In this document: piece by piece, positions 1-22,376 of the stretch | Layout of the letters: each line of letters begins with the position of its first letter | Numbering within the stretch: the first letter of the stretch is position 1 | IMG/VR virus record: IMGVR_UViG_3300023284_000416 | Location: 1-24,314 of that record | Reading direction: 5' to 3' (one strand) | DNA: 24,314 bases | Source of the DNA: a virus | Notes under the pieces: model-generated | Seen by the model: the letters and a program-made list of their open reading frames with translations, nothing else | The model's database searches: none | Told to the model about the DNA's origin: nothing | Made by a program: the position numbers and the translations under genes

Positions 1-1075
1 AGTCCAACAATTTCAAGGCCTCGGATGGATAACGAGTGGCCAGACCGGATTCTGCAAGCTCCTTGACCGGCAAATTATAGGCAGTCGATTTGCGAAGAAG
101 CTGTTGAAGGATCCCTAGTGCCTGCTGGAAGTGAGAGCCGGAGCGGATGCATACTTCGGCAAATGCGGCTGATTCAGTCCCAGAGCGACGGTCGAACGAT
201 TTCGGCCACACCTCCGAAATTAGTGGCATGATTCGATTTGTCCAATAGTCTTCCCGCTGGTCACCAGCATCGACAAGCGCCTTGGCCAACATTCTTGCAG
301 ATTCTGCTAAGCCCTCGACTGGCAAGGCATTAAATGTGTCTCTGAGCTCGTCATTGGTGAAGTGATCCCGTAACTCTACTGTTGTGATCGCGAGTAGCGA
401 TGCGTATTGACTATCGTGCTCCCCAAGGTTTTTGTAGTGACTAGCTGTTGCAAGGAACGATGTCTTGAATGATTCAAGTAGATCGCGCGAAATCCGCGGC
501 GTCCACAAGTACCCCTCCCATACCGAACGGGCCTCCTGTGGATCACTGTTCCAGTTGAAATAAGGTAGTAGACTCTGAACTGTCCATCGCGGATCAACTA
601 GATATAGTGCACTCAAATGCTCTGCCATTATAACCCGACCGTGCGGTAGCTTAATCACTTTTGAATCTGCCATGCGATTAAGTCTGATCTTTAGCGGCTG
701 TGGCAACCCATCATTAGCTTTAGGTCGTGTTCGATACCACCAATTAATGAGCGCTTCGGCAACTTGCCCGAGGGGGTGGTTGATGGCCTTGAATACGGGA
801 TCCTCATCGGGAACGAATGCTTCTAAGGATGCGCAATCTATCAATCGATCAATGAGTTTTAGGCAGTTTTCACCCGGCGTCGCAATATAAGAATTGATCA
901 CGAACGTCAGCCACCAGCTCAGGGTATGAGCGAGAAGGTGCTCATCGAGGCCACGCTTCGGTACGACCGTGCTGTGCCGGCAGAGGGCCTGAACGACGGT
1001 CTCGGAGGGATCAATCTCGGTGTGACGACGATCTAGCCCATCTGGGCCTCGGTTTCCCCGGCCGAGTAAAACCAT
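1..1075 (-). pseudogene. C-terminal part of a SIR2/DUF4020-type (Dsr1-like) defence protein, 5'-truncated, runs off left edge
   Basis: One minus-strand frame is open from about 1095 to position 1 and continues out of the window (about 358 codons). Reading from the right, it carries the blocks HTLSWWLTFVI, INHPLGQVAEALINWWYR, HGRVIMAEHLSALYLVD, WEGYLWTPRISRDLLE and REDYWTNRIMPLISEVWPKS. From memory these match the C-terminal DUF4020-like region of large SIR2-family proteins, which includes the defence-associated sirtuin Dsr1. In those proteins an N-terminal SIR2 domain depletes NAD on phage infection. Here the frame stops at about 1095 and the upstream DNA is phage tail sequence, so no SIR2 domain is present on this side. 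The first in-frame ATG is at 1075-1073, with no convincing ribosome site. The alternatives are a short independent gene or an assembly chimera. The coding frame itself is convincing; the family name is an inference. Confidence 0.6.
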
Positions 1076-1080
1076 GTACC

Positions 1081-1086
1081 AGGAGG
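1081..1086 (+). promoter_or_regulatory. Ribosome binding site that sets the start of the first tail gene
   Basis: AGGAGG lies 8 bases before ATG 1095. An in-frame ATG at 1074 lies upstream of this site and has no Shine-Dalgarno sequence of its own, so 1095 is the better start. Confidence 0.75.
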
Positions 1087-1094
1087 ATAGAGCA

Positions 1095-1961
1095 ATGGAT
1101 CAGGAGCAAAGTCCTACCCCGGAGCCCCCGAAGGCCCCACCGACCAGTCCAGCGGCGTCCAGCCGCTTGAAGTTTCCTATCGAGCTACCCTCGGGCGGCT
1201 ACGTCTATGGAGACAAGCTGCCTGGAGGCAAGTTGGAGATCGGTCCTCTCACCACGCGGGAGGAGATGATAATCGCTGGCTTCCGGGAGTCCGGGAACAG
1301 CGACGTGAACATGCTCGTGGACTCGATCCTGAAAAGCTGCATCACGCTGCCGGAGGGGTTCGTCTACGAGGACCTGCTCATCACCGACCGCTTCTTCTTG
1401 ATAGCCAATGTGAGGGCTATCAGCTTTGGAGAGAAGTACGGCTTCCAGTGGCGCTGCCCTTGCACCAACAAGGCACAGCGGGCCGTGAAGAATCTCCCTG
1501 GTGACCTGAAGCTGTTCAAGCTGGAGAACGGATACCATGAGCCGTTCGAGGTCAAGCTGCCGATGTGTGAACGGACAGTCGGCTTGCGCCTGCTCCGGAT
1601 CAGCGATGAAAGGGCCATTGAACACTATCGTGAACAGATGATTGATCGAGCAAAAGAAGCCCCGATAGGTGATCCGGGATACTTCTTCAAGATGGCTCGC
1701 CGGATTGCCACCTTGGACGGACAGGTCCCCGAGATCGACGCCAAGCTGGAGTTCGTGGGGAATCTGCTCTCCGTGGACTCCATCGAGATGCAGAACGAGT
1801 ACGAGAAGAACGAGTCAGGTTTTGAACTGAAAACCATAGTCCAATGCCGTTTCTGCGGTCAGGAGAGGGAGATCACAATGCCGTTTTCGGCTGAGTTCTT
1901 TCGTCCTGAGCGACCTGGACGAGGCCGGGAAACAGCAGTACCTGAGAGGGATACTCCATGA
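1095..1961 (+). CDS. T4 gp26-like baseplate/tail assembly protein (zero-frame product)
   Basis: This 288-residue protein has a Pro-rich N-terminus (residues 5-20). Next come FPIELPSGGYVYG (27-39) and PLTTREEM (51-58), which are typical of the T4 gp26 baseplate family (PF12322). Two cysteine pairs, CPC at 121-123 and CRFC at 251-254, could form one zinc site, like the CPKC pair in T4 gp26. The last 20 or so residues after FSAEFF (264-269) are low-complexity and Arg/Pro-rich and look non-native. From there the +1 frame carries the better-looking coding sequence. The gene lies directly before the tape measure gene, the usual place of tail assembly chaperones, so it may act in tail or baseplate-hub assembly. 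The sheath and tube genes usually found upstream are absent from this window. Confidence 0.7.
   Translation: MDQEQSPTPEPPKAPPTSPAASSRLKFPIELPSGGYVYGDKLPGGKLEIGPLTTREEMIIAGFRESGNSDVNMLVDSILKSCITLPEGFVYEDLLITDRFFLIANVRAISFGEKYGFQWRCPCTNKAQRAVKNLPGDLKLFKLENGYHEPFEVKLPMCERTVGLRLLRISDERAIEHYREQMIDRAKEAPIGDPGYFFKMARRIATLDGQVPEIDAKLEFVGNLLSVDSIEMQNEYEKNESGFELKTIVQCRFCGQEREITMPFSAEFFRPERPGRGRETAVPERDTP
1896..1904 (+). other. Candidate +1 ribosomal frameshift site
   Basis: In the zero frame the codons are TTC TTT CGT. A Phe tRNA on TTT (1899-1901) could slip forward one base to TTC (1900-1902), after which the next codon is GTC at 1903. The zero frame then degenerates, while the +1 frame continues with LSDLDEAGKQQYL. 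A second slippery run, TTTT at 1884-1887, is a less likely site because the FSAEFF block that follows looks native in the zero frame. Confidence 0.5.
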
Positions 1962-2157
1962 CATCGTATACCTGACCTGGAACGAAAACTCCAGCTACAG
2001 CTACGCTGATGTCATGGGCATGTCCCGGCTGGAGCGGAAGCTTTTGAACGATACGATTGGTGAGGTCATGCAGGAGCGGAAGAAACAGCAGGAACAGGAC
2101 GCTAGTAGGTCTCGGGCGCGAGCAAGCTCTGCGGGTCGCAGGAGAGGACGACGATAA
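1903..2157 (+). CDS. +1-frame extension: small helical tail assembly chaperone-like domain
   Basis: These 84 codons read in the +1 frame relative to the gp26-like gene. The stop TAA (2155-2157) overlaps the tape measure ATG as TAATG, matching the coupling seen through the operon. The product has the pattern LRGILHDIVYLTWNENSSY, then ADVMGMSRLERKLLN, then a KKQQEQ helix and an Arg-rich tail. This resembles the short helical domain of tail chaperones, which often reads as hydrophobic-Y...S..DV..M...ER. No ATG, GTG or TTG precedes the domain; the first ATG (2014) lies in its middle. Expression as a fusion of about 353 residues by frameshifting is therefore the simplest model, as for lambda G/GT, which also sits before the tape measure gene. 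A sequencing error or a real frameshift mutation could also explain it. Confidence 0.65.
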   Translation, partial: VLSDLDEAGKQQYLRGILHDIVYLTWNENSSYSYADVMGMSRLERKLLNDTIGEVMQERKKQQEQDASRSRARASSAGRRRGRR

Positions 2158-3956
2158 TGGCCCTTGACGACCAGGCCATGGAATTTCAGATCGGTATGGA
2201 CATCAAGGACCTCCTCTCTCGGGTGGATGACCTTGAAGGCTCCTTTGAAGACTTCGTCAAGGCCGGCGAGGATGCCGGCGACCAGGCTATAGACACCTCT
2301 AAATCCATGGACATGATGGCAGCCTCTGCGGAGAGCGCTGGGATAGCTGTGAAGGCGCTCACCATCTCGGCCGTGGCCTTGGGGGCTTTTGGGATCGGTG
2401 CTCTGCTGGATGGGTTCACGTGGCTCATCAAGAAGGGCTTCGAGGCCCAGGATATGTTTCGGGGCCTCGCTGTCCAGACAGGTATGACTATCGAGGAGAT
2501 GGACGCCTATGGGGACGTGGTATTCGAGTCCACGAAGCGTTATGGTCTGGCCCTGCGTGAAATCAACACGATAGCCACCTTCGTCGCCACCAACTCCCTC
2601 CGAGGCCGGAAGAATATCGAGGACTGGTCGGACTCCCTGGCTGCTCTCCAGACGTTCACGAAATCCAATGAGGAGACGACCAGAACCTTTGGTGATCTGG
2701 CGATCAACTTATACAGGACCTCTGGCAAGGAGGCCAAGAAGTTCGGATTCGGCCTGGAGGCGGCATTCCATGCCGCCAATATAAGCTTCGATGAGGGCGT
2801 AGGAATCCTCAAGTCTTTGGAGGAAGTGACGGCGACGATGCCTGGACGGGAGAAAGAGATGGCCATGCAGATTGCCGTGGCCACCTCAGCCCTTAAAGAT
2901 CAGGGATTCACCACTGAGGAGAGCATCGGCCTCGTCAACCAACTGTTTGACCGCAACAGCCGACTTGGGGCTCAATTCTTCAAGCTGGCCCGTCATGACC
3001 TGCCGGCGGCGGTCGGGAAGTCATTGGAATACGTCCGGTCTCTCGGTCTCACGGAGCAGAATCTGGACCTTGTGGCGGAGCAGCTTGGTCTCAGCCGGGT
3101 CGCCACCAACAAGGCTATGACCGCCACGTTTGATGCCACGAAAGCTCAAGGCGCTTTCAACAAGACCATGAATATGTCTATGACCGAGATCATAGAAAAC
3201 AAAAAGAGTATGCAGAGCCTCGGTGATCTGTGGAGTCAGGTCTGGGGCAAGCTGAAGGGTATCTTCACTGAGTGGGGAAGCCACATTGCCTCGTTTCTCG
3301 ATAAGCCGGCCCGTGCCTTTTTAATAACCATAGGCGATCTTACAGAGCGCTTCCGTCAGGCCAAGACATGGGGTGAGTTCGTGGGCATTATCAAGGACGA
3401 GTGGAAGAAGTTTACTAAATGGTGGAACGAAACCCTCCAGCCTACGGTCGGTGAGAATTGGGACAAGCTCGTTAAATGGATGAAACAAACGGCACTACCG
3501 ACACTCGAAACGGCATTCGTAGAATGGGTAGTCCCGTTCTCCAGGAGAATCGGGAAGATGCTGTTCGAGGGGATGAAGGAGCAAACTGCCATCGCCGCTG
3601 GAAACATAACCGGAGATGTATTGGAGGCGGCTACGTTTGGCCTCTATGAATCTCCGGAGACCTTCCTGAGAAAGCACAAAGCAGCTATGGGCGGGGTAGT
3701 CAGGGGAAGGACGCCAAGGACAGCAGGGGGCGTCGTGGGTGGTCCTTTGCCCGCTGCACCTGCTGGAGCCGTAGAGCCGAAGGTCATGGTCTCGAACCAG
3801 ATAGACAACTCTGATGTGGTGAAGGCGACAGAGGAGAATACCGAAATAAACAAGCAAATCCTAAAGTTCATCAAAGGTGGTGGGGCGCTTATCGCGTCAC
3901 ACCAACCGGCTCCCACTAACTGGAGTCCTAGTCCTCTGATGGCTGGGAACATCTGA
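2157..3956 (+). CDS. Tail tape measure protein
   Basis: This protein has 599 residues. It begins with a charged helical region (1-55). A strongly hydrophobic, Ala/Gly-rich stretch follows (about 61-93, KALTISAVALGAFGIGALLDG), as in tape measure proteins. A long helical body comes next, then a Trp-rich amphipathic region (about 365-465, with WKKFTKWWNE and WDKLVKWMK). The C-terminal linker is Gly/Pro-rich (about 528-558). In this family the protein fills the tail tube, sets tail length and is ejected into the cell. By the usual 1.5 angstrom per residue, about 600 residues would fit a tail near 90 nm, which is an inference. The position after the chaperone-like gene and before the baseplate genes fits. 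Its stop overlaps the next ATG as TGATG. Confidence 0.8.
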   Translation: MALDDQAMEFQIGMDIKDLLSRVDDLEGSFEDFVKAGEDAGDQAIDTSKSMDMMAASAESAGIAVKALTISAVALGAFGIGALLDGFTWLIKKGFEAQDMFRGLAVQTGMTIEEMDAYGDVVFESTKRYGLALREINTIATFVATNSLRGRKNIEDWSDSLAALQTFTKSNEETTRTFGDLAINLYRTSGKEAKKFGFGLEAAFHAANISFDEGVGILKSLEEVTATMPGREKEMAMQIAVATSALKDQGFTTEESIGLVNQLFDRNSRLGAQFFKLARHDLPAAVGKSLEYVRSLGLTEQNLDLVAEQLGLSRVATNKAMTATFDATKAQGAFNKTMNMSMTEIIENKKSMQSLGDLWSQVWGKLKGIFTEWGSHIASFLDKPARAFLITIGDLTERFRQAKTWGEFVGIIKDEWKKFTKWWNETLQPTVGENWDKLVKWMKQTALPTLETAFVEWVVPFSRRIGKMLFEGMKEQTAIAAGNITGDVLEAATFGLYESPETFLRKHKAAMGGVVRGRTPRTAGGVVGGPLPAAPAGAVEPKVMVSNQIDNSDVVKATEENTEINKQILKFIKGGGALIASHQPAPTNWSPSPLMAGNI

Positions 3957-7628: not shown

Positions 7629-10105
7629 TGGCCAACGAGAATCAACTACCTCCGGTAAGCCTCGTAGCCCGTGATTTCAACACGATCCGGGACGCGCTGA
7701 TAGGTCACGTCCAGACCTTCTTCGGGGACGACCAGGACGATTTCCTGGAGTCCAATCTGGGCATTATGATCCTGGAGATGGTTGCCTTCATCGGCGACAA
7801 CATCAGCTTCTACATAGACCGCTCCAGCAACGAAGCCTTCCTGCCCACGGCTCAGAGCCGCCGGAACGTCCTCAACCTCGTCAAGCTGGTCGGATTCGTC
7901 CCCAGGACGGCTACGCCGGCCCTGGTGCCCTTGCAGGCCCTGTTCCAGGCCGTACAGGCTGCCACGACGACGATCAATGCCGGCACCCAGGTCACAGACC
8001 CCAATGGCACGATCTACGAGATTCTCCAGAATGTCAACATCCCGGCCGGCGTGCTCGACAGCAGGGCCGTCGTGGTCACGGCCGAAGTGCTCATCACCGC
8101 TCCTGGAGTCACGACCGTATTCAGCTTGCAACTGCTGAATCTCAATATCAATAAAAACAGCATCGCAATGACCCATACGGTTCCGGGTCCCACGACGCAC
8201 ACGGACGGCGTGGACGATGGGAACGGGGGCCTGTCCGGGACCAACATCGCCAGCGGTACAATCGACTACGACACGGGCGAGATCGAGATCACGTACACGG
8301 TGGCTCCAGCCGTTGGTACGGACATCCTCATCAGCTATACCTTTGAGGTTCCGATCACGGCCTTCGAGGGCCAGAGCGCTTCGGACACATTCTCCTCAGA
8401 CGGCACAGGATTCCAGGAACTCAAACTCACCCAGACTCCCGTGCTCGTGGACCCGCTCATCCGAACGACCCTGCCGGTCCCGGATGCTGCCCCGATCACT
8501 GTGAAGGTGGACGCGGTTGTATGGACCCGAGTGGAGTCCTTTGTAACGGCCGGCCCGACCAGCGAGGTCTACGTCCTGGAGATCGACGAGAACGATAACG
8601 TCACCATCCAGTTCGGAGACAACATCCAAGGCAAGATTCCGCCGCAGGGCATTGGCAACGTCGTCATCGACTACCGGATCGGTGGTGGTCTGGTCGGCAA
8701 CATTGCGATCAACTTCATCGACACCAGCATCAACGGGACCTCGGGCGGGAACCCGGTCAGCTTAACTATCAGGAACCCGGAGCGTGGCTCTGGTGGCGCT
8801 GAGAGGCAATCTACGGCGGAGATCAAGCTAGAGGCTCCTCGCTTTGCCCGGACCAATGACACGGGCACGACCGAGGAAGACTTCGATACACTGTCCTCGA
8901 CGTTCAGTGACCCGAGTGCTGGTACAGTGGCTCGGGCGAAGTCTCGTCTCACCCCCGTCCAAACTATCGACGCAGAGCAGATCGTCAATAGCCAGGTGAT
9001 CGCGTCTGGAGACGGATCGAAACTTTCCTTCGACAGTGCTGCCAACATCGAAGACCTGCCATTCGCCCGCGTGCCACTGATCTTCAACGCTACCGATCCG
9101 AGGATCACGATCACGGCTACGGTCTCGTCCAGCGCCGTGGTCATAACGGATGACGGGGCCGGAGCCCTGAGCGGTACAAGCGTGACCGGAGCGATCAATC
9201 AGACTACTGGTGAATGGACGTTGGTGTTCACGGGTACTGCTCCCGACGTTGGGACAAACATCACGGCTACTTATGCTGTACAGGAGAAGCAGTTCGAGCT
9301 TCCATCCAACAACATCGAGATATACGCCTGGGCCTTTGACGCACTCGGGAATTTGGTCCAGCCCAGCACGCCACTCAAGGACGCGCTCAAGGACTTCCTG
9401 GACGGAAAGAAGGTCCTGAACACCTCTGTGCAGGTAATCGACGGACTGAACATCACGGTCGATTACGACATGACCGTGGAGTTTGATACTCAGGTGGCGC
9501 AGTCGGATACGGAGGATTTGATCCAATCTACCCTGGAGGCTTTCTTTGCCTCCAGCGTGAATGTCGAGCCCGGAGACACGATCAAGCTGGCCGCGATCTA
9601 TGACGTGCTGTTCCCACTCAGGGGGATCATCTCCGTCATCATCGACAATATCACGGTCAAGCAGCAGATTGGTATCTCGGATGGCTCGGACATCGTCTTC
9701 CGGACTGACGAGGCTCTGTTCTCCACTGCTGCGGCTCCAGGGCTGTTCATCCCATCTGGCCGGGTCCCGATCAAGAAAACTGCTGGGACGATCAAGGTCT
9801 CCAAGATCGACACGCTTGGCGTGGAGACGGCGTTGGGGGCTGATGCCAGTTTCATAGTCGTTGGAGGCGACGACGTTGCAGTCTTCGATGTTACCGGGCT
9901 CTTGGATACTGGCTCCACCTTGAATCTCGCTACAGGACGCTTTCAAATCTTCCTGGACTCAACCGACACCGCCAACACCCGGTACTTCCTGGAGTTCATC
10001 CTCGACAACGACACGGCCGGCCAGGGTATCCTGGATGTTGTGGTCGGCGTGTTCGAGATCGCCGTCCTGGGTGACATTGTCGTCAACAGTGTGAAGATCA
10101 ACTGA
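7628..10105 (+). CDS. gpJ/T4 gp6-like baseplate wedge protein with inserted beta modules
   Basis: An 825-residue protein, much longer than P2 gpJ. The N-terminus (15-100), with DFNTIRDAL, DDFLESNLGIMILEMVAFIGD and RRNVLNLVKLVGF, is typical of Baseplate_J proteins. The core continues at about 290-450 (ENDNVTIQFGDNIQGKIPP) and at 575-680. Inserted in it are beta modules at about 155-245 and 457-552, with DDGNGGLSGT or DDGAGALSGT, then a TG turn, then AP..GT.I..sY. A weaker third copy lies near 682-795. A similar module sits in the next tail protein. These look like Ig-like decoration domains. The stop lies in TGATG; the next real tail gene lies 640 bases on because an HNH gene has been inserted. 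Confidence 0.85.
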   Translation: MANENQLPPVSLVARDFNTIRDALIGHVQTFFGDDQDDFLESNLGIMILEMVAFIGDNISFYIDRSSNEAFLPTAQSRRNVLNLVKLVGFVPRTATPALVPLQALFQAVQAATTTINAGTQVTDPNGTIYEILQNVNIPAGVLDSRAVVVTAEVLITAPGVTTVFSLQLLNLNINKNSIAMTHTVPGPTTHTDGVDDGNGGLSGTNIASGTIDYDTGEIEITYTVAPAVGTDILISYTFEVPITAFEGQSASDTFSSDGTGFQELKLTQTPVLVDPLIRTTLPVPDAAPITVKVDAVVWTRVESFVTAGPTSEVYVLEIDENDNVTIQFGDNIQGKIPPQGIGNVVIDYRIGGGLVGNIAINFIDTSINGTSGGNPVSLTIRNPERGSGGAERQSTAEIKLEAPRFARTNDTGTTEEDFDTLSSTFSDPSAGTVARAKSRLTPVQTIDAEQIVNSQVIASGDGSKLSFDSAANIEDLPFARVPLIFNATDPRITITATVSSSAVVITDDGAGALSGTSVTGAINQTTGEWTLVFTGTAPDVGTNITATYAVQEKQFELPSNNIEIYAWAFDALGNLVQPSTPLKDALKDFLDGKKVLNTSVQVIDGLNITVDYDMTVEFDTQVAQSDTEDLIQSTLEAFFASSVNVEPGDTIKLAAIYDVLFPLRGIISVIIDNITVKQQIGISDGSDIVFRTDEALFSTAAAPGLFIPSGRVPIKKTAGTIKVSKIDTLGVETALGADASFIVVGGDDVAVFDVTGLLDTGSTLNLATGRFQIFLDSTDTANTRYFLEFILDNDTAGQGILDVVVGVFEIAVLGDIVVNSVKIN

Positions 10106-10129
10106 TGACAACCCCACCAACCATAGGGA

Positions 10130-10660
10130 TCACATTGCGATTTTGGTTTGTCGTGCTGGTGGGTTGGATAGGTATACTTGAGCAGCTTGAAGCGCGAGTG
10201 GATTCTCTTCCAAGAAGCCTAGAACGGCGTTACACAGTGAACACAATAGACCACGGACTTCTCCTGTTTTGTGGTCGTGGTCAACCTGTAACCTTTTGTC
10301 TCTACAGGTTGAACTCTCTCGTCTGCAAATGGCACACTTACCACCCTGTGCCACAAATAGCCTATCGTAGTCCTTTAGACCTATGCCATATCTCCTCAGC
10401 AAATTTTTGTTCCGATGCCAATCCTTATTGTTATGGTAATGAGCCTTTGCCTTTTCACAGACGCTCTTTTTGTTCCGCTCGTACCATTTGCGAGACTGGA
10501 TTCGCACACTTTCCCTACGGGCTGGGTTGTTTGCAGCATAGGCTCTTTGTGTGGCGTTTGTACACTCACGACATTGCGGCTTTAACCCATCTGGGCTACA
10601 AGAATACCTGCCAAAATCGCATAGCGGTTTGGTGCTCTTACACTTTGTACAGGTTTTCAT
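10130..10660 (-). CDS. Endonuclease VII-like HNH homing endonuclease, antisense in the baseplate operon
   Basis: A 176-residue protein. The C-terminal half is a recombination endonuclease VII domain (PF02945). It has CAIC at 109-112, LQVDHDHKTGEVRG with catalytic-type DHDH at 127-130, then CSLCN at 140-144; the four cysteines would bind zinc. The N-terminus adds a second CxxC pair (C4/C7 and C30/C33) followed by a basic helical linker (39-90), probably for DNA recognition. Stand-alone genes of this kind are mobile in phages. It lies on the strand opposite the tail operon, exactly between gpJ and gpI. The A+T content and codon use are visibly unlike the flanking genes, as expected for a later arrival. 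A candidate promoter precedes it. Confidence 0.88.
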   Translation of the reverse strand: MKTCTKCKSTKPLCDFGRYSCSPDGLKPQCRECTNATQRAYAANNPARRESVRIQSRKWYERNKKSVCEKAKAHYHNNKDWHRNKNLLRRYGIGLKDYDRLFVAQGGKCAICRRESSTCRDKRLQVDHDHKTGEVRGLLCSLCNAVLGFLEENPLALQAAQVYLSNPPARQTKIAM

Positions 10661-10695
10661 TTGGTTTTTCCAGGCTGGTGGCTCTTGATCCTCAT

Positions 10696-10724
10696 ACTAT
10701 ATATTTTCAGAGGACAGGATACAA
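10696..10724 (-). promoter_or_regulatory. Candidate sigma70-type promoter for the antisense HNH gene
   Basis: On the minus strand TTGTAT (10724-10719) and TATAGT (10701-10696) are separated by 17 bases. The matches to consensus are four of six and five of six. Transcription would start near 10689, about 30 bases before the ATG at 10660. This would let the HNH gene be expressed independently of the tail operon. Confidence 0.45.
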
Positions 10725-10745
10725 CCTAAAGTCAGGAAAGGCATA

Positions 10746-12341
10746 ATGGCTCTCAGACTCGACCTAGCCTCGCTGCCAGACATCTATGCTCTGTTCCCGG
10801 AGCATACGAGGGTCGAGGACAATTTCATCGTCGGCAGCGACGGTGTGGAGTTTCAATGGGATGACCCCTCGGTCCAGTGGGACGAGGTGGGCGTCCAGTG
10901 GGACAAGCTCACCTTCCCGGAGCCGATCCTGCGTTTGACCACACGGGTCCTCCAGCGCGAGTTGAACCAGTTCGTTCAGGACGTAGACAAGTTCCTGACC
11001 ATATTCGACGTGGACGCGGCCGATCCGGAGTTCCTGCCTTACCTCGCCAGTCTCCTTGGCTTCACTCTCAACACCGAGGTTGGGGACTTGGAGCAGCGTG
11101 AGTTCATCAAGAAGCTCGTAAACTGGTACAGGATAAAGGGAACCAGGCAGTCGTTCTTTGTCATGTTCCGGTCTCTGGGCTTCGAGCCTACGATCCTCCA
11201 GCTATACCAGATCAACAGTGAGCCAGCGGTGGTCTCGGGATCACCAGTGGATGTGGTGACTGGCTTTGAGCCTGACCTGCTTCAGGACAACACGATAGAC
11301 AACGAGGTCATCGCTACCGGAGACGGGATCACTACTGCCTTCGGCGACTTCTTCCTCAACAATGCTGCACTCATGCGTGGGACCGTTCAGATCACTGTTG
11401 AGGACGTGGGCCTCCGGGCCACTGACACCGCTGGTCTCATCGACCCGTCCAAGGGCACGATGGATGGTCCTGGCTTCATCAGTGGCACGACCGTTGAGTA
11501 CAAGAGCGGCAAGATCGTGGCACTTACCTTCGACACCGCTCCAGCCACTGGCAAGGAGATTCGGGTCAGCTACAGCTTCTTCCGGGACGCTTACCCCAAC
11601 CCCTACGACAATGCCGAGAGCTTCGATGTGCCATTCGCGTCTGGGATCGAGGTCTTCAGCAGCGACGTGGCATTCCGGTCCAGCTTCTTTGACCTAACGC
11701 TGACGCCGATCAACCCAGCCCTTGGCCTCGACATTACAATCATTATCCGAATCTTAGACCTGCTCGATAGGGTCAAGCCAGCGCACTCGGTAGTCCGTAA
11801 CTTGACGCTCGCTATCATCTTGGAGGACCTGCTGGTACTGTCGGATGAACTGGCGATCATCCTGAAGTTCGTTCCAGAGTTCTTCCCGACTGACCTGACT
11901 CTCTATCATGGGAAGGGCCTCGACATAGCCTGTGATCCCTTCGCTGCCTTGAGGGACGGGCTCGGTGTACATCCAGGACAGCCGGCCGCGAATCCTATCC
12001 AGAGTGGCACGGTCACCTTTGACGCTGCTCCAACGACATTGAGCTTCACTACGGCCCTCGTAGTCCTCGGAGCACCAAACCTCTCTGTACCGACGAAGGG
12101 GCCGATCAACGGAGAGGCCAGAGCCATCAGTTCCATCGTGGACGGAGGCAGCTTTCGTACGGTAAACTTGTCTACTGCTCTGTCCGTGGCACCAACTGTC
12201 GGTGACAGTTTCTCGCTCCTGGACGGAACTGCTCAGAGGGATCGGCTCACCACTGATCCGCAGGACGAGCTTGAGTTCGAGAAGTTCAATCAGCCAGGAA
12301 ATACATCTGCTGGTCCACCGATCCTGTTAGGAGTCCTATAG
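10746..12341 (+). CDS. gpI-like phage tail protein (baseplate) with an inserted beta module
   Basis: This 531-residue protein begins like P2 gpI-family tail proteins. It has LDLASLPDIYALFPEH at 5-20, then LQRELNQFVQDVDKFLTIFDVDAAD, FLPYLASLLGF (97-107) and KLVNWYRIKGTRQSFFVMF (123-141). In P2-like tails gpI links the baseplate wedge to fibres. Residues 37-54 contain three QWD repeats spaced by seven. Residues 187-279 form a beta module like those in the gpJ-like protein (GDGITTAF ... GFISGT ... SGKI ... TFDTAPATGKEIRVSYSF). The start has its own site, AGGAAAGG, 5 bases upstream of the ATG. This ATG overlaps the stop of an open plus-strand frame across the HNH insertion. Confidence 0.8.
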   Translation: MALRLDLASLPDIYALFPEHTRVEDNFIVGSDGVEFQWDDPSVQWDEVGVQWDKLTFPEPILRLTTRVLQRELNQFVQDVDKFLTIFDVDAADPEFLPYLASLLGFTLNTEVGDLEQREFIKKLVNWYRIKGTRQSFFVMFRSLGFEPTILQLYQINSEPAVVSGSPVDVVTGFEPDLLQDNTIDNEVIATGDGITTAFGDFFLNNAALMRGTVQITVEDVGLRATDTAGLIDPSKGTMDGPGFISGTTVEYKSGKIVALTFDTAPATGKEIRVSYSFFRDAYPNPYDNAESFDVPFASGIEVFSSDVAFRSSFFDLTLTPINPALGLDITIIIRILDLLDRVKPAHSVVRNLTLAIILEDLLVLSDELAIILKFVPEFFPTDLTLYHGKGLDIACDPFAALRDGLGVHPGQPAANPIQSGTVTFDAAPTTLSFTTALVVLGAPNLSVPTKGPINGEARAISSIVDGGSFRTVNLSTALSVAPTVGDSFSLLDGTAQRDRLTTDPQDELEFEKFNQPGNTSAGPPILLGVL

Positions 12342-13438: not shown

Positions 13439-14218
13439 ATGGAACTACCGACCAAAATACCCTGTCTGATTTGCGGCAAGATGCTTGGCGTGCTCAACAA
13501 GCACGTGAAGTTCGTGCATGGCATCTCGGGAGATGAATACAAAGCCAAGTACGGTGGCGAGGTCGTGGCCCCAGCGGTCCTGGCCAAGCGCACACGTAGC
13601 TGCAAGCGCTTCTGGAACACACCAGAGGGTAAGGACAAGGCTCGTGACCGATGTGCCCTCAACACCCCAGAGAACATTGCGGCCCGATCCCACATCATCG
13701 CAGCAGCCAACCGCAACCCAGCCCACAAGAAGGCTCGGGCCGAAGGCTTCAAGCGGTGGGTATACGAGACGGAAGACGGTAGGAAGTTCAGAGACTCTCA
13801 GGCTAAGAGCATGAAAGGCAAGGCGGAGAGGATTTGGAAAGACGATTCCTTTAGGGAAAAGATGAGAGAGGTAGGCCGGAGGAACTTCCAACGGGTCAGT
13901 GCACATAACGTGGACCCTAACGGCCTTGAGCTAAGATTCTACGAGATCGCCCTCCAGGCCGGGATCGACGTGACCTATACCGATCACAAGTTCTGGAAAC
14001 GGTTGAAAGATGGTCGATCTATCACACCAGACTTCATGGTTGATGGGCTGGTCATCGAGATATACGGTGACTACTGGCATAGGGGTGATGATCCTCAAGA
14101 CCGTATTAACGATTGGGATTCTGTTGGCCTGACAGCCATCGTCATTTGGGAACACGAGATGAAAGAACCGGAGCAGGTGCTACAGCGCCTAGCTGGCTTC
14201 TTGGAGGATGTAGCCTAA
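13439..14218 (+). CDS. Vsr-like (EDxHD) homing endonuclease with a MucR-type zinc finger
   Basis: A 259-residue protein. Residues 9-38 form a MucR/Ros-like C2H2 finger (C9, C12, H22, H27, then HGISGDEYKAKYG). Residues 50-150 hold basic helical repeats, such as FWNTPEGKDKARDR and RIWKDDSFREKMREVGRRNF, like NUMOD-type DNA-binding linkers. The C-terminal nuclease has NGLE (E164), TPDFMVDG (D198), VIEIYGDYWH (E207, H214) and VIWEHEM (237 region). This is the order seen in very-short-patch-repair and EDxHD homing nucleases such as I-Bth0305I. Unlike the other two endonucleases here, it lies in the operon direction. Its stop overlaps the tailspike ATG (TAATG), so it may feed ribosomes to that gene. 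Confidence 0.82.
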   Translation: MELPTKIPCLICGKMLGVLNKHVKFVHGISGDEYKAKYGGEVVAPAVLAKRTRSCKRFWNTPEGKDKARDRCALNTPENIAARSHIIAAANRNPAHKKARAEGFKRWVYETEDGRKFRDSQAKSMKGKAERIWKDDSFREKMREVGRRNFQRVSAHNVDPNGLELRFYEIALQAGIDVTYTDHKFWKRLKDGRSITPDFMVDGLVIEIYGDYWHRGDDPQDRINDWDSVGLTAIVIWEHEMKEPEQVLQRLAGFLEDVA

Positions 14219-20738: not shown

Positions 20739-20942
20739 TTACGTCTCCTTTTCCAGTTTTTCAATGAGTATCTCTGCTTCACGGAGCCATAGCTCGCAGG
20801 AGCGAAACTTACGATTCTGACACAGTGTTTCTACCCAATCTAGGTCACGGCCTATCTGCTCCAGGGCACCAGCCTCTGAGCCTTCTGGTAGGGCCTTTGC
20901 CCGGGAACGAAGCTCAGAAAGCATGTCGGTCGTTTTGCCCAC
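20739..20942 (-). CDS. Small helical hypothetical protein (GTG start)
   Basis: A 67-residue, almost wholly helical, charged protein with two Cys (CQNRKFRSC, about 41-49). The GTG start overlaps the stop of the Topo VIA-like gene as TAGTG, so translation is probably coupled to it and the two may work together. No family recognised. Confidence 0.55.
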   Translation of the reverse strand: MGKTTDMLSELRSRAKALPEGSEAGALEQIGRDLDWVETLCQNRKFRSCELWLREAEILIEKLEKET

Positions 20943-21835
20943 TACAGACTCTCTGTGATCTCATCCCAATTCCCCGAGATTTCTCCCAGAAGGCGCTGGG
21001 CTTCTACCTCCTTCTCTATCGCGTCGTCCCAGAGGTCCTGGTCACGGACCTCTATGACTGCACCATGGATCAGATCGTTCAGCACCTCTGGCTCCAGGGC
21101 GTCAAGCTCCCAGGACTCGTCTCCGAACTCCGCAATGTAGGCATCGGCACGTGGGTCCTGGACCTTGGCCGGGTTGGGCGGTGGGCTGTAGGTTTCGATA
21201 TGGGAGAAGTTCAAGGCCAGTCGGTCCACCTTTATCCTACCCATGAATACCGACAGGCGGTCCTTGATGTCCCGCGTCATGTCGATCCCAGACGGATCGT
21301 GGTCTCCGAAGTGCAGGATCAGCGGAGTCTGGCCGGCCTTGATGTACTTCTTCAGGCGTTCAGAGGCTTCCCACATCGCGGTCACTGAGGAGTAGCCCCG
21401 GCACGCGAAGTAGGAGATGTCCAACTCTTCGCACGTGTCGGAGATGAGACCGACCAGTGCGTCCTTCTCGATCCAGACCTCGGGCCGGAAGTCTTGATCC
21501 TCCCACTTGTCGTAGGCGAAGGTCCTGGCGCAGATGTCCACGATGGACTCCGGAGACTCCCAATGGCTGTTCTGCTCTAACTTCCGCCCACGATCCTTGA
21601 TATGGTCCCAATCCAAGAGGCCGTTCATCCGGCCCTTGGCAATGATGTCACCGAGCCGGCTGTAACTCCGTTGAGTGTTTTCGATTATGGTTCGTGCTAC
21701 TAGCTGATAATAAACGCCGCGTAAGGTCAGTTCATAGCCTTTCTGTGCATAGTCCTCTAGGATTGTGTTAGCTGTCTCGATAATGGCTAGTGAGTCTGCC
21801 GTGAGCCTTTGGTTGACGTATTGGATTTTAGGCAT
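20942..21835 (-). CDS. Topoisomerase VI A/Spo11-like protein (Mini-A type)
   Basis: A 297-residue protein from ATG 21835 (AAGG upstream); a start at 21862 adds nine residues but lacks a ribosome site. Residues 37-43, TLRGVYY, match the catalytic Tyr motif of the winged-helix (5Y-CAP) domain of Topo VI subunit A and Spo11, with Y42 or Y43 as nucleophile. A Toprim domain follows: E123 in WIEKDALVGL, the conserved middle AMWEASERLKKYI, and GDHDPSGIDM (177-186) with D178 and D180 as metal ligands. Known Mini-A proteins are stand-alone A subunits found in phages and plasmids. No B subunit (GHKL ATPase) is in the window. It might cut DNA or rejoin it during replication or recombination. Confidence 0.75.
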   Translation of the reverse strand: MPKIQYVNQRLTADSLAIIETANTILEDYAQKGYELTLRGVYYQLVARTIIENTQRSYSRLGDIIAKGRMNGLLDWDHIKDRGRKLEQNSHWESPESIVDICARTFAYDKWEDQDFRPEVWIEKDALVGLISDTCEELDISYFACRGYSSVTAMWEASERLKKYIKAGQTPLILHFGDHDPSGIDMTRDIKDRLSVFMGRIKVDRLALNFSHIETYSPPPNPAKVQDPRADAYIAEFGDESWELDALEPEVLNDLIHGAVIEVRDQDLWDDAIEKEVEAQRLLGEISGNWDEITESL

Positions 21836-21893
21836 TGACCTTGCCTCGTCTTTGTAGTACATCTAACTCTACTACACACAAGGAGCATAGCAA

Positions 21894-22376
21894 ATGAGAA
21901 AGAAAGGCAACCTGATAGACATACCAAATGACATTCCAGAAACTGAGGTTGCTTATGCTGCTGGCATCTTCGATGGTGAGGGTTGCATTTCGATTACTAA
22001 GCAGAATGCTGGAAGGTGTGGTCGTATTAACGTGAGCCATCGTCTTTTCATCAAGATTACTATGGGCCATAGACCCACGATTGATTGGCTCAAAAACACT
22101 TTCAAGGTGGGGTCGGTCACTGTTCAAAAGCATAAGAAGTACAATGATGGATACAACTGGTGGGTAGCAGCCAACGAGGCAATAGAAATACTGAGACTCT
22201 TTAGGCCATTCCTCAAGGTGAAGGCCAAAGAAGCCGACCTCGCGTCTGAGTTCTCTAACATCACATGGGATCAAGGTAAGCTCCGGACACTTCCACCAAA
22301 GGTTGTTTCCGAGCGTGAGAGGTACTATCACCTTATGCAAGAGGCTAAACCTTCCCATAGGTTCAGGGTTAGTTAG
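21894..22376 (+). CDS. LAGLIDADG homing endonuclease, opposed to its neighbours
   Basis: A 160-residue protein with a clear ribosome site (AAGGAG before ATG 21894). Residues 20-30, AYAAGIFDGEG, are a LAGLIDADG motif with D27 or E29 as the metal ligand. Only one copy is seen, so it should act as a homodimer. The later W-L-x-x-x-F and NWWVAANEAIEILRLFRPFLKVKAKEA stretches fit the family. It is on the plus strand within the leftward gene block, between the Topo VIA-like gene and a zinc protein. Its stop touches the convergent minus-strand stop at 22373. It is a free-standing mobile gene; no intron is needed. Confidence 0.85.
   Translation: MRKKGNLIDIPNDIPETEVAYAAGIFDGEGCISITKQNAGRCGRINVSHRLFIKITMGHRPTIDWLKNTFKVGSVTVQKHKKYNDGYNWWVAANEAIEILRLFRPFLKVKAKEADLASEFSNITWDQGKLRTLPPKVVSERERYYHLMQEAKPSHRFRVS

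What the first reader, a model, noticed from the sequence alone, without database searches (positions are those of the whole stretch)
1878..2157. Probable programmed +1 frameshift making a chaperone-like fusion before the tape measure gene
The +1 frame has 84 codons of good protein-like sequence, no usable start codon before the domain, and a stop in TAATG with the tape measure gene. The zero frame becomes low-complexity after FSAEFF. TTC TTT C at 1896-1902 could allow a +1 Phe slip. This copies the position and logic of lambda G/GT, but in a gp26-like myovirus gene.
Basis: partly seen in the sequence, partly recalled or inferred. Interest (0 to 1): 0.75.

Follow-up and report, generated by a model that had tools for sequence, protein, structure and literature searches.

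The report
+1 frameshift in phage tail chaperone
A virus of bacteria very probably makes a longer version of its tail-building helper protein by letting ribosomes skip one base at a fixed spot; the helper family and this general trick are known, but a large branch that skips forward (+1), perhaps aided by an RNA hairpin, does not seem to have been described.

Summary
A T4 gp26-type gene (1095-1961) runs into an 84-codon +1 frame (1903-2154) that ends in TAATG with the next gene and has no ATG/GTG/TTG before its 38th codon.

It is not a sequencing error: a relative with 71% identical gp26 keeps both frames and the same GAG TTC TTT CGT CCT GAG. In 116 of 118 readable loci of the wider family the C-terminal domain is in the +1 frame. 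In the window's slip class the second Phe codon is UUU in 21 of 21 lineages, while the first varies (12 UUU, 9 UUC).

The short form's predicted structure has the HK97 tail assembly chaperone as top PDB match, and T4 gp26 and gp51 share its Pfam family. So this is a short/long tail chaperone pair like lambda G/GT.

Such chaperones, including -1 poly-T versions in T4-like phages (Vladimirov 2022, known to me only as cited), are known. What looks new is a whole +1 branch, and a candidate stimulator: a stem-loop just 5' of the slip, stronger than synonymous codon choice predicts in +1 but not in -1 members. Translation was not measured.

The parts
1081..1086 (+). AGGAGG, likely ribosome binding site of the gp26-type gene
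   Evidence: read from the sequence; 8 bases before ATG 1095
1095..1961 (+). gp26-type gene, short tail assembly chaperone form (288 aa, stop TGA 1959-1961)
   Evidence: Pfam T4_baseplate E 3e-13; PHROG 150 baseplate hub; model matches HK97 tail assembly chaperone 2ob9
1880..1891 (+). candidate 5' stem-loop GCCG-UUUU-CGGC directly upstream of the slip site
   Evidence: group tests; L002 has CUGCCG-UUCU-CGGCAG. For the window alone the rank within its gene is only 0.22
1896..1902 (+). +1 slip site UUC UUU C: P-site tRNA-Phe re-pairs from UUU (1899-1901) to UUC (1900-1902)
   Evidence: identical in L002; second Phe codon TTT in 21/21 lineages of this class
1903..2157 (+). +1 frame, C-terminal domain of the long form (84 codons and stop TAA 2155-2157); counterpart of the end of T4 gp51
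2140..2147 (+). AGGAGAGG, likely ribosome binding site of the tape-measure gene, inside the +1 domain
   Evidence: read from the sequence
2157..3956 (+). putative tape-measure protein (599 aa), overlapping the +1 stop by TAATG
   Evidence: position, length, weak PHROG 167 (tail length tape measure, E 0.31); 57% identical in L002

Best explanation
The locus encodes the tail assembly chaperone of a myovirus as two nested products from one start. Most ribosomes stop at 1961 and give the short gp26-type form. A minority slip one base forward at GAG UUC UUU CGU: peptidyl-tRNA-Phe on UUU re-pairs on the overlapping UUC and decoding goes on with GUC in the +1 frame. This gives a 353-residue long form whose C-terminal helical domain corresponds to the end of T4 gp51. 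By analogy with lambda G/GT, the short form should coat the tape-measure protein and the long form should bring in tube subunits. Shown here: both frames, their conservation, selection on UUU at the slip codon, homology of both domains, a chaperone-like fold. Inferred: that slippage happens and at what rate, that the 5' stem-loop helps it, and the division of labour.
For: Both frames and the slip sequence kept in L002. +1 offset in 116/118 readable loci, including GXN1 with the same TTC TTT CGT. Second Phe codon TTT in 21/21 lineages of this class (13.6 expected, P about 1e-5), first Phe codon 12/21; in the sister class TTT 55/55 and CTT 14/16 among Leu cases: the codons that re-pair at +1. 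L122 has no ATG/GTG/TTG anywhere in its 73-codon extension. L048, where the domain has its own ATG, has a drifted site TTC CTT TGG CCA GAT. C-terminal domains of +1 and -1 groups are related (hhalign 91%), and the -1 domains to T4 gp51's end (92%). Short-form model: HK97 chaperone top PDB match, Z 5.8, 94 of 107 residues, next row 2.2.
Against: No protein or reporter data. No Shine-Dalgarno element at prfB spacing and no downstream RNA structure. The A-site codon CGU is neither a stop nor known to be rare here. Z 5.8 is middling by the tool's own notes. The window domain against the -1 group without its relatives is weak (13-25%).
Confidence: 0.92

Rival explanations
1. The +1 frame is a separate gene, started by a non-standard or internal start codon through translational coupling.
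For: Some relatives have start codons near the beginning of the +1 extension, and L048 has such an arrangement.
Against: No ATG/GTG/TTG before codon 38 in the window and none at all in L122; ATG 1878 is in the zero frame and is CTG in L002; this would not explain UUU at the slip codon in 21/21 lineages.
Confidence: 0.05
2. Sequencing or assembly error: one base gained or lost in a gene that is really a single frame.
For: The window is a single metagenomic virus record.
Against: L002 and isolate genomes (SP-15, LIS04, GXN1, immuto, Mel-JY01, RM378) show the same offset, as do 109 IMG/VR loci bar two.
Confidence: 0.005
3. The second frame is reached by RNA polymerase slippage, not by the ribosome.
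For: Many sister-group relatives have seven or more T's at the site (TTTTTTTGG).
Against: In the window, L002, GXN1, L106 and L114 the run is only TTCTTTC, and in other loci TTTCTTTGG, too short for polymerase slippage as generally understood (own knowledge).
Confidence: 0.02

Closest known systems
Lambda gpG/gpGT tail assembly chaperones (reviewed in PMC5009743)
   Different: Lambda shifts -1; here +1. The short form is a gp26-type protein of about 270 residues, larger than the compact HK97 chaperone (107 residues in 2ob9).
T4 gp26/gp51 and the -1 poly-T chaperones of T4-like phages (Vladimirov et al. 2022, as cited in PMC10885494 and PMC12846349)
   Same: Same Pfam family, same FF at the end of the short form, related C-terminal domain; T4 makes short and long forms from two genes.
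   Different: Those phages shift -1 at T TTT TTC or use two genes; the window's branch shifts +1 at UUU C, UUU U or CUU U.
Bacterial prfB (RF2) +1 frameshift (own knowledge)
   Same: P-site re-pairing by +1; CUU U, used by part of the sister group, is the prfB slip codon and next base.
   Different: No stop codon in the A site and no Shine-Dalgarno element three bases upstream; a hairpin sits upstream instead.
HSTV-2, archaeal myovirus, tail chaperone said to be 'very likely +1' (PMC5009743)
   Same: +1 direction in a myovirus tail chaperone.
   Different: Relation to the gp26 family was not tested here.

Membership tests
[quoted passage not shown]
   tape-measure identity itself is by position and weak hit
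Frameshifted tail assembly chaperones (lambda G/GT type) | Chaperone fold of the short form | tested here: met
   HK97 chaperone 2ob9 is top PDB match, Z 5.8, rmsd 5.6, 94 of 107 residues, well above the next row 2.2; Z is middling, so a moderate test
Frameshifted tail assembly chaperones (lambda G/GT type) | Both forms made in a fixed ratio and absent from the virion | not testable with these tools
   needs mass spectrometry
T4 gp26/gp51 family (Pfam T4_baseplate) | T4_baseplate domain | tested here: met
   E 2.9e-13, 50.4 bits against a cut-off of 24.5; T4 gp26 and gp51 both match it
T4 gp26/gp51 family (Pfam T4_baseplate) | gp51-type C-terminal domain | tested here: met
   by chain: +1 domains to -1 domains 91%, -1 domains to T4 gp51 end 92%; directly window to -1 group only 13-25%
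-1 poly-T frameshift class of T4-like phages | Shift of -1 at T TTT TTC | tested here: not met
   window and 115 other loci are +1; the tree puts them beyond a 100/100 branch, with one -1 member (LR756511) nested among them
prfB-type +1 frameshift | Stop codon in the A site and Shine-Dalgarno element at three bases | tested here: not met
   A-site codon CGU; no such element by eye in 21 group-B sites

The most novel reading that the evidence does not exclude
A large, old branch of gp26-type tail chaperones uses +1 instead of -1 frameshifting, driven by P-site re-pairing on UUU Y or CUU U together with an mRNA stem-loop lying immediately 5' of the slip, in the ribosome's exit region, as a new kind of +1 stimulator in place of a Shine-Dalgarno element or a downstream structure.
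Probability: 0.35. Interest if true: 0.68.

Novelty: new variant of a known kind. Interest (0 to 1): 0.52.

Why it matters
It extends the T4-like chaperone story to hundreds of mostly unannotated phages; in SP-15, LIS04 and GXN1 the long form's domain is missed or only partly annotated. One protein family split between +1 and -1 shifting at the same place is a natural comparison of the two mechanisms. The slip-codon statistics and the 5' stem-loop make a mechanism for bacterial +1 frameshifting testable with short reporters. It also explains why cyanophage gp51 lacks about 200 N-terminal residues (PMC3037559): that part is gp26.

Tried and rejected
Downstream RNA structure: no signal. Shine-Dalgarno element at prfB spacing: not seen. 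Internal ATG 1878 behind a purine-rich stretch: zero frame, and CTG in L002, so not a start for the domain. Closer relatives in IMG/VR through five scans with the window's own genes: none. 245 genomes of the L002 phylum: five genomes with matches, of which only G001 (L002's own genome) is of the +1 class; the others that could be read (L173-L175, L177, L178) carry the domain in the -1 frame. PDB by sequence: nothing. Fold search with the C-terminal domain: 'Tape measure chaperone' of Citrobacter phage Moogle at rank 3 but E 0.45, not counted as evidence. Vladimirov 2022 is not held, so whether it mentions +1 cases is unknown.

Full report
OBSERVATION. The gp26-type ORF starts at ATG 1095 behind AGGAGG and ends at TGA 1959-1961. 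The +1 frame is open from after TAG 1837 to TAA 2155-2157. The zero frame reads GAG TTC TTT CGT CCT GAG; the +1 frame after TTT C reads GTC CTG AGC GAC (VLSDLDEAGKQQYL...). No ATG, GTG or TTG lies in the +1 frame before 2014. Its stop overlaps the ATG of the next gene at 2157.

FAMILY. The zero-frame product matches Pfam T4_baseplate and PHROG 150, baseplate hub. The +1 domain alone matches nothing convincing in either library. Downstream genes are baseplate proteins by PHROG.

CLOSE RELATIVE. The only close relative found is L002, a contig binned with a Neomarinimicrobiota MAG. It has the same gene order and the same two frames; gp26 is 71% identical and the +1 domain 60%. From 1860 to 1908 the two DNAs differ at 3 positions, against 57 of 180 in 1722-1901. 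After the zero-frame stop the mismatches fall 15/14/33 on +1 codon positions, so that frame is coding.

DISTANT RELATIVES. tblastn on phage records (extended) led to SP-15, LIS04, GXN1, immuto, Mel-JY01, RM378 and the uncultured giant phage LR756508: in all of these the domain downstream of gp26 lies in the +1 frame. In LR756511 and in cyanophages, Caulobacter Cr30, Sinorhizobium phiM9, Ackermannviridae, Vibrio D492, Cronobacter S13 and Pseudomonas Milchi it lies in the -1 frame, mostly at T TTT TTC. T4 gp26 and T4 gp51 both match T4_baseplate, and gp51 carries an extra C-terminal stretch: T4 has the short and long forms as two genes. In the tree they group together (94/87) on the -1 side of a 100/100 branch; 39 +1 rows and LR756511 are on the other side (T4gp51, RM378 and phiM9 are long branches).

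SURVEY. Two profile scans of IMG/VR gave 115 loci, one of them reporting at least 591 relatives. With the isolates, 118 loci could be read; the extension is +1 in 116. Slip contexts are TTT YTT TGG CCT GAC (group A), TTY TTT CGT CCN (group B, with the window) and a few others. In group B the second Phe codon is TTT in 21 of 21 lineages (13.6 expected from each gene's own usage, P about 1e-5), while the first is TTT in 12 of 21. In group A it is TTT in 55 of 55, and 14 of 16 Leu cases in the whole set are CTT. UUU before C or U, and CUU before U, are codons whose tRNA can re-pair at +1. L048, whose domain has its own ATG, reads TTC CTT TGG CCA GAT.

FOLD AND HOMOLOGY. The short form is modelled at pLDDT 93. 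Its best viral match is SP-15 gp26. Its best PDB match is the HK97 tail assembly chaperone, Z 5.8 over 94 of 107 residues, the next row being 2.2. The +1 domain is a confident three-helix model. HMM comparison links the +1 domains to the -1 domains (91%) and these to the T4 gp51 end (92%).

STIMULATORS. Downstream structure shows no signal. Upstream, a small stem-loop abuts the slip: GCCG UUUU CGGC in the window, CUGCCG UUCU CGGCAG in L002. Against synonymous-codon shuffles, the nine codons before the Phe pair fold better than control stretches of the same genes in group B (18 lineages, p 0.008 over the first two offsets) and, over a wider stretch, in group A (38 lineages, p 3e-6), but not in the -1 group (11 lineages). 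In one subgroup of 12 the stem shows compensatory changes (11 cells changed on both sides; 8 of 500 shuffles as high). Of four loci fetched later, L145, L146 and L148 fold a stem at the same place and L149 a different one. This is suggestive, not proof: the pattern was seen first and tested afterwards, and the lineages are related.

PRIOR ART. The lambda mechanism and its spread are reviewed in PMC5009743, which calls it widely conserved 'except T4' and mentions one probable +1 case, the archaeal myovirus HSTV-2. PMC10885494 and PMC12846349 cite Vladimirov et al. 2022 for T4-like chaperones: a short gene plus a long gene in some, poly-T -1 signals in others. That paper is not held. PMC3037559 reports that cyanophage gp51 lacks about 200 N-terminal residues and does not mention frameshifting. 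I found no description of the +1 branch in the open library, which is no proof that none exists.

CONCLUSION. A programmed +1 frameshift making the long tail assembly chaperone is by far the best reading (0.92). It is a new variant of a known kind; the +1 branch and the 5' stem-loop are the parts worth a specialist's time.

Noticed in passing
window 1-1036: The end of a tail tube gene (RYDRAVPAEGLNDGLGGINLGVTTI*, about 960-1036) matches the tube gene of L002, but everything to its left is unrelated (a minus-strand ORF without Pfam hit). Either something is inserted in the tube gene or the contig is chimeric at about 955.
   Followed up: partly
L002:3756-3758: The gp26 gene of the close relative has an in-frame TAA near its start; sequencing error or a broken copy.
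   Followed up: no
L048:1501-2600: A natural exception: the C-terminal domain follows gp26 as an ORF with its own ATG, and the slip sequence has drifted.
   Followed up: partly
window 20942-21862, minus strand: A 306-residue protein that looks by eye like a topoisomerase VI A / Spo11-type TOPRIM protein, but without a Pfam hit.
   Followed up: no
window 10130-10660 (minus), 13439-14218 (+), 21894-22376 (+): Possible homing or recombination endonucleases between structural genes: Endonuclease_7, a ROS/MUCR zinc-finger protein, and LAGLIDADG_1. The Endonuclease_7 gene lies antisense to a long plus-strand ORF (10105-10746).
   Followed up: partly
L126, L127, L128, L132, L133, L123: A third slip class reading GAA TTA TTY AAT CCC AGT or similar, also +1, where the exact slip point is unclear (CCC A is one candidate).
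   Followed up: no
L007 (LR756511.1) about 3700: A -1 site (GGT TTT TTC TTC) nested inside the +1 branch of the tree, an apparent return to -1.
   Followed up: partly
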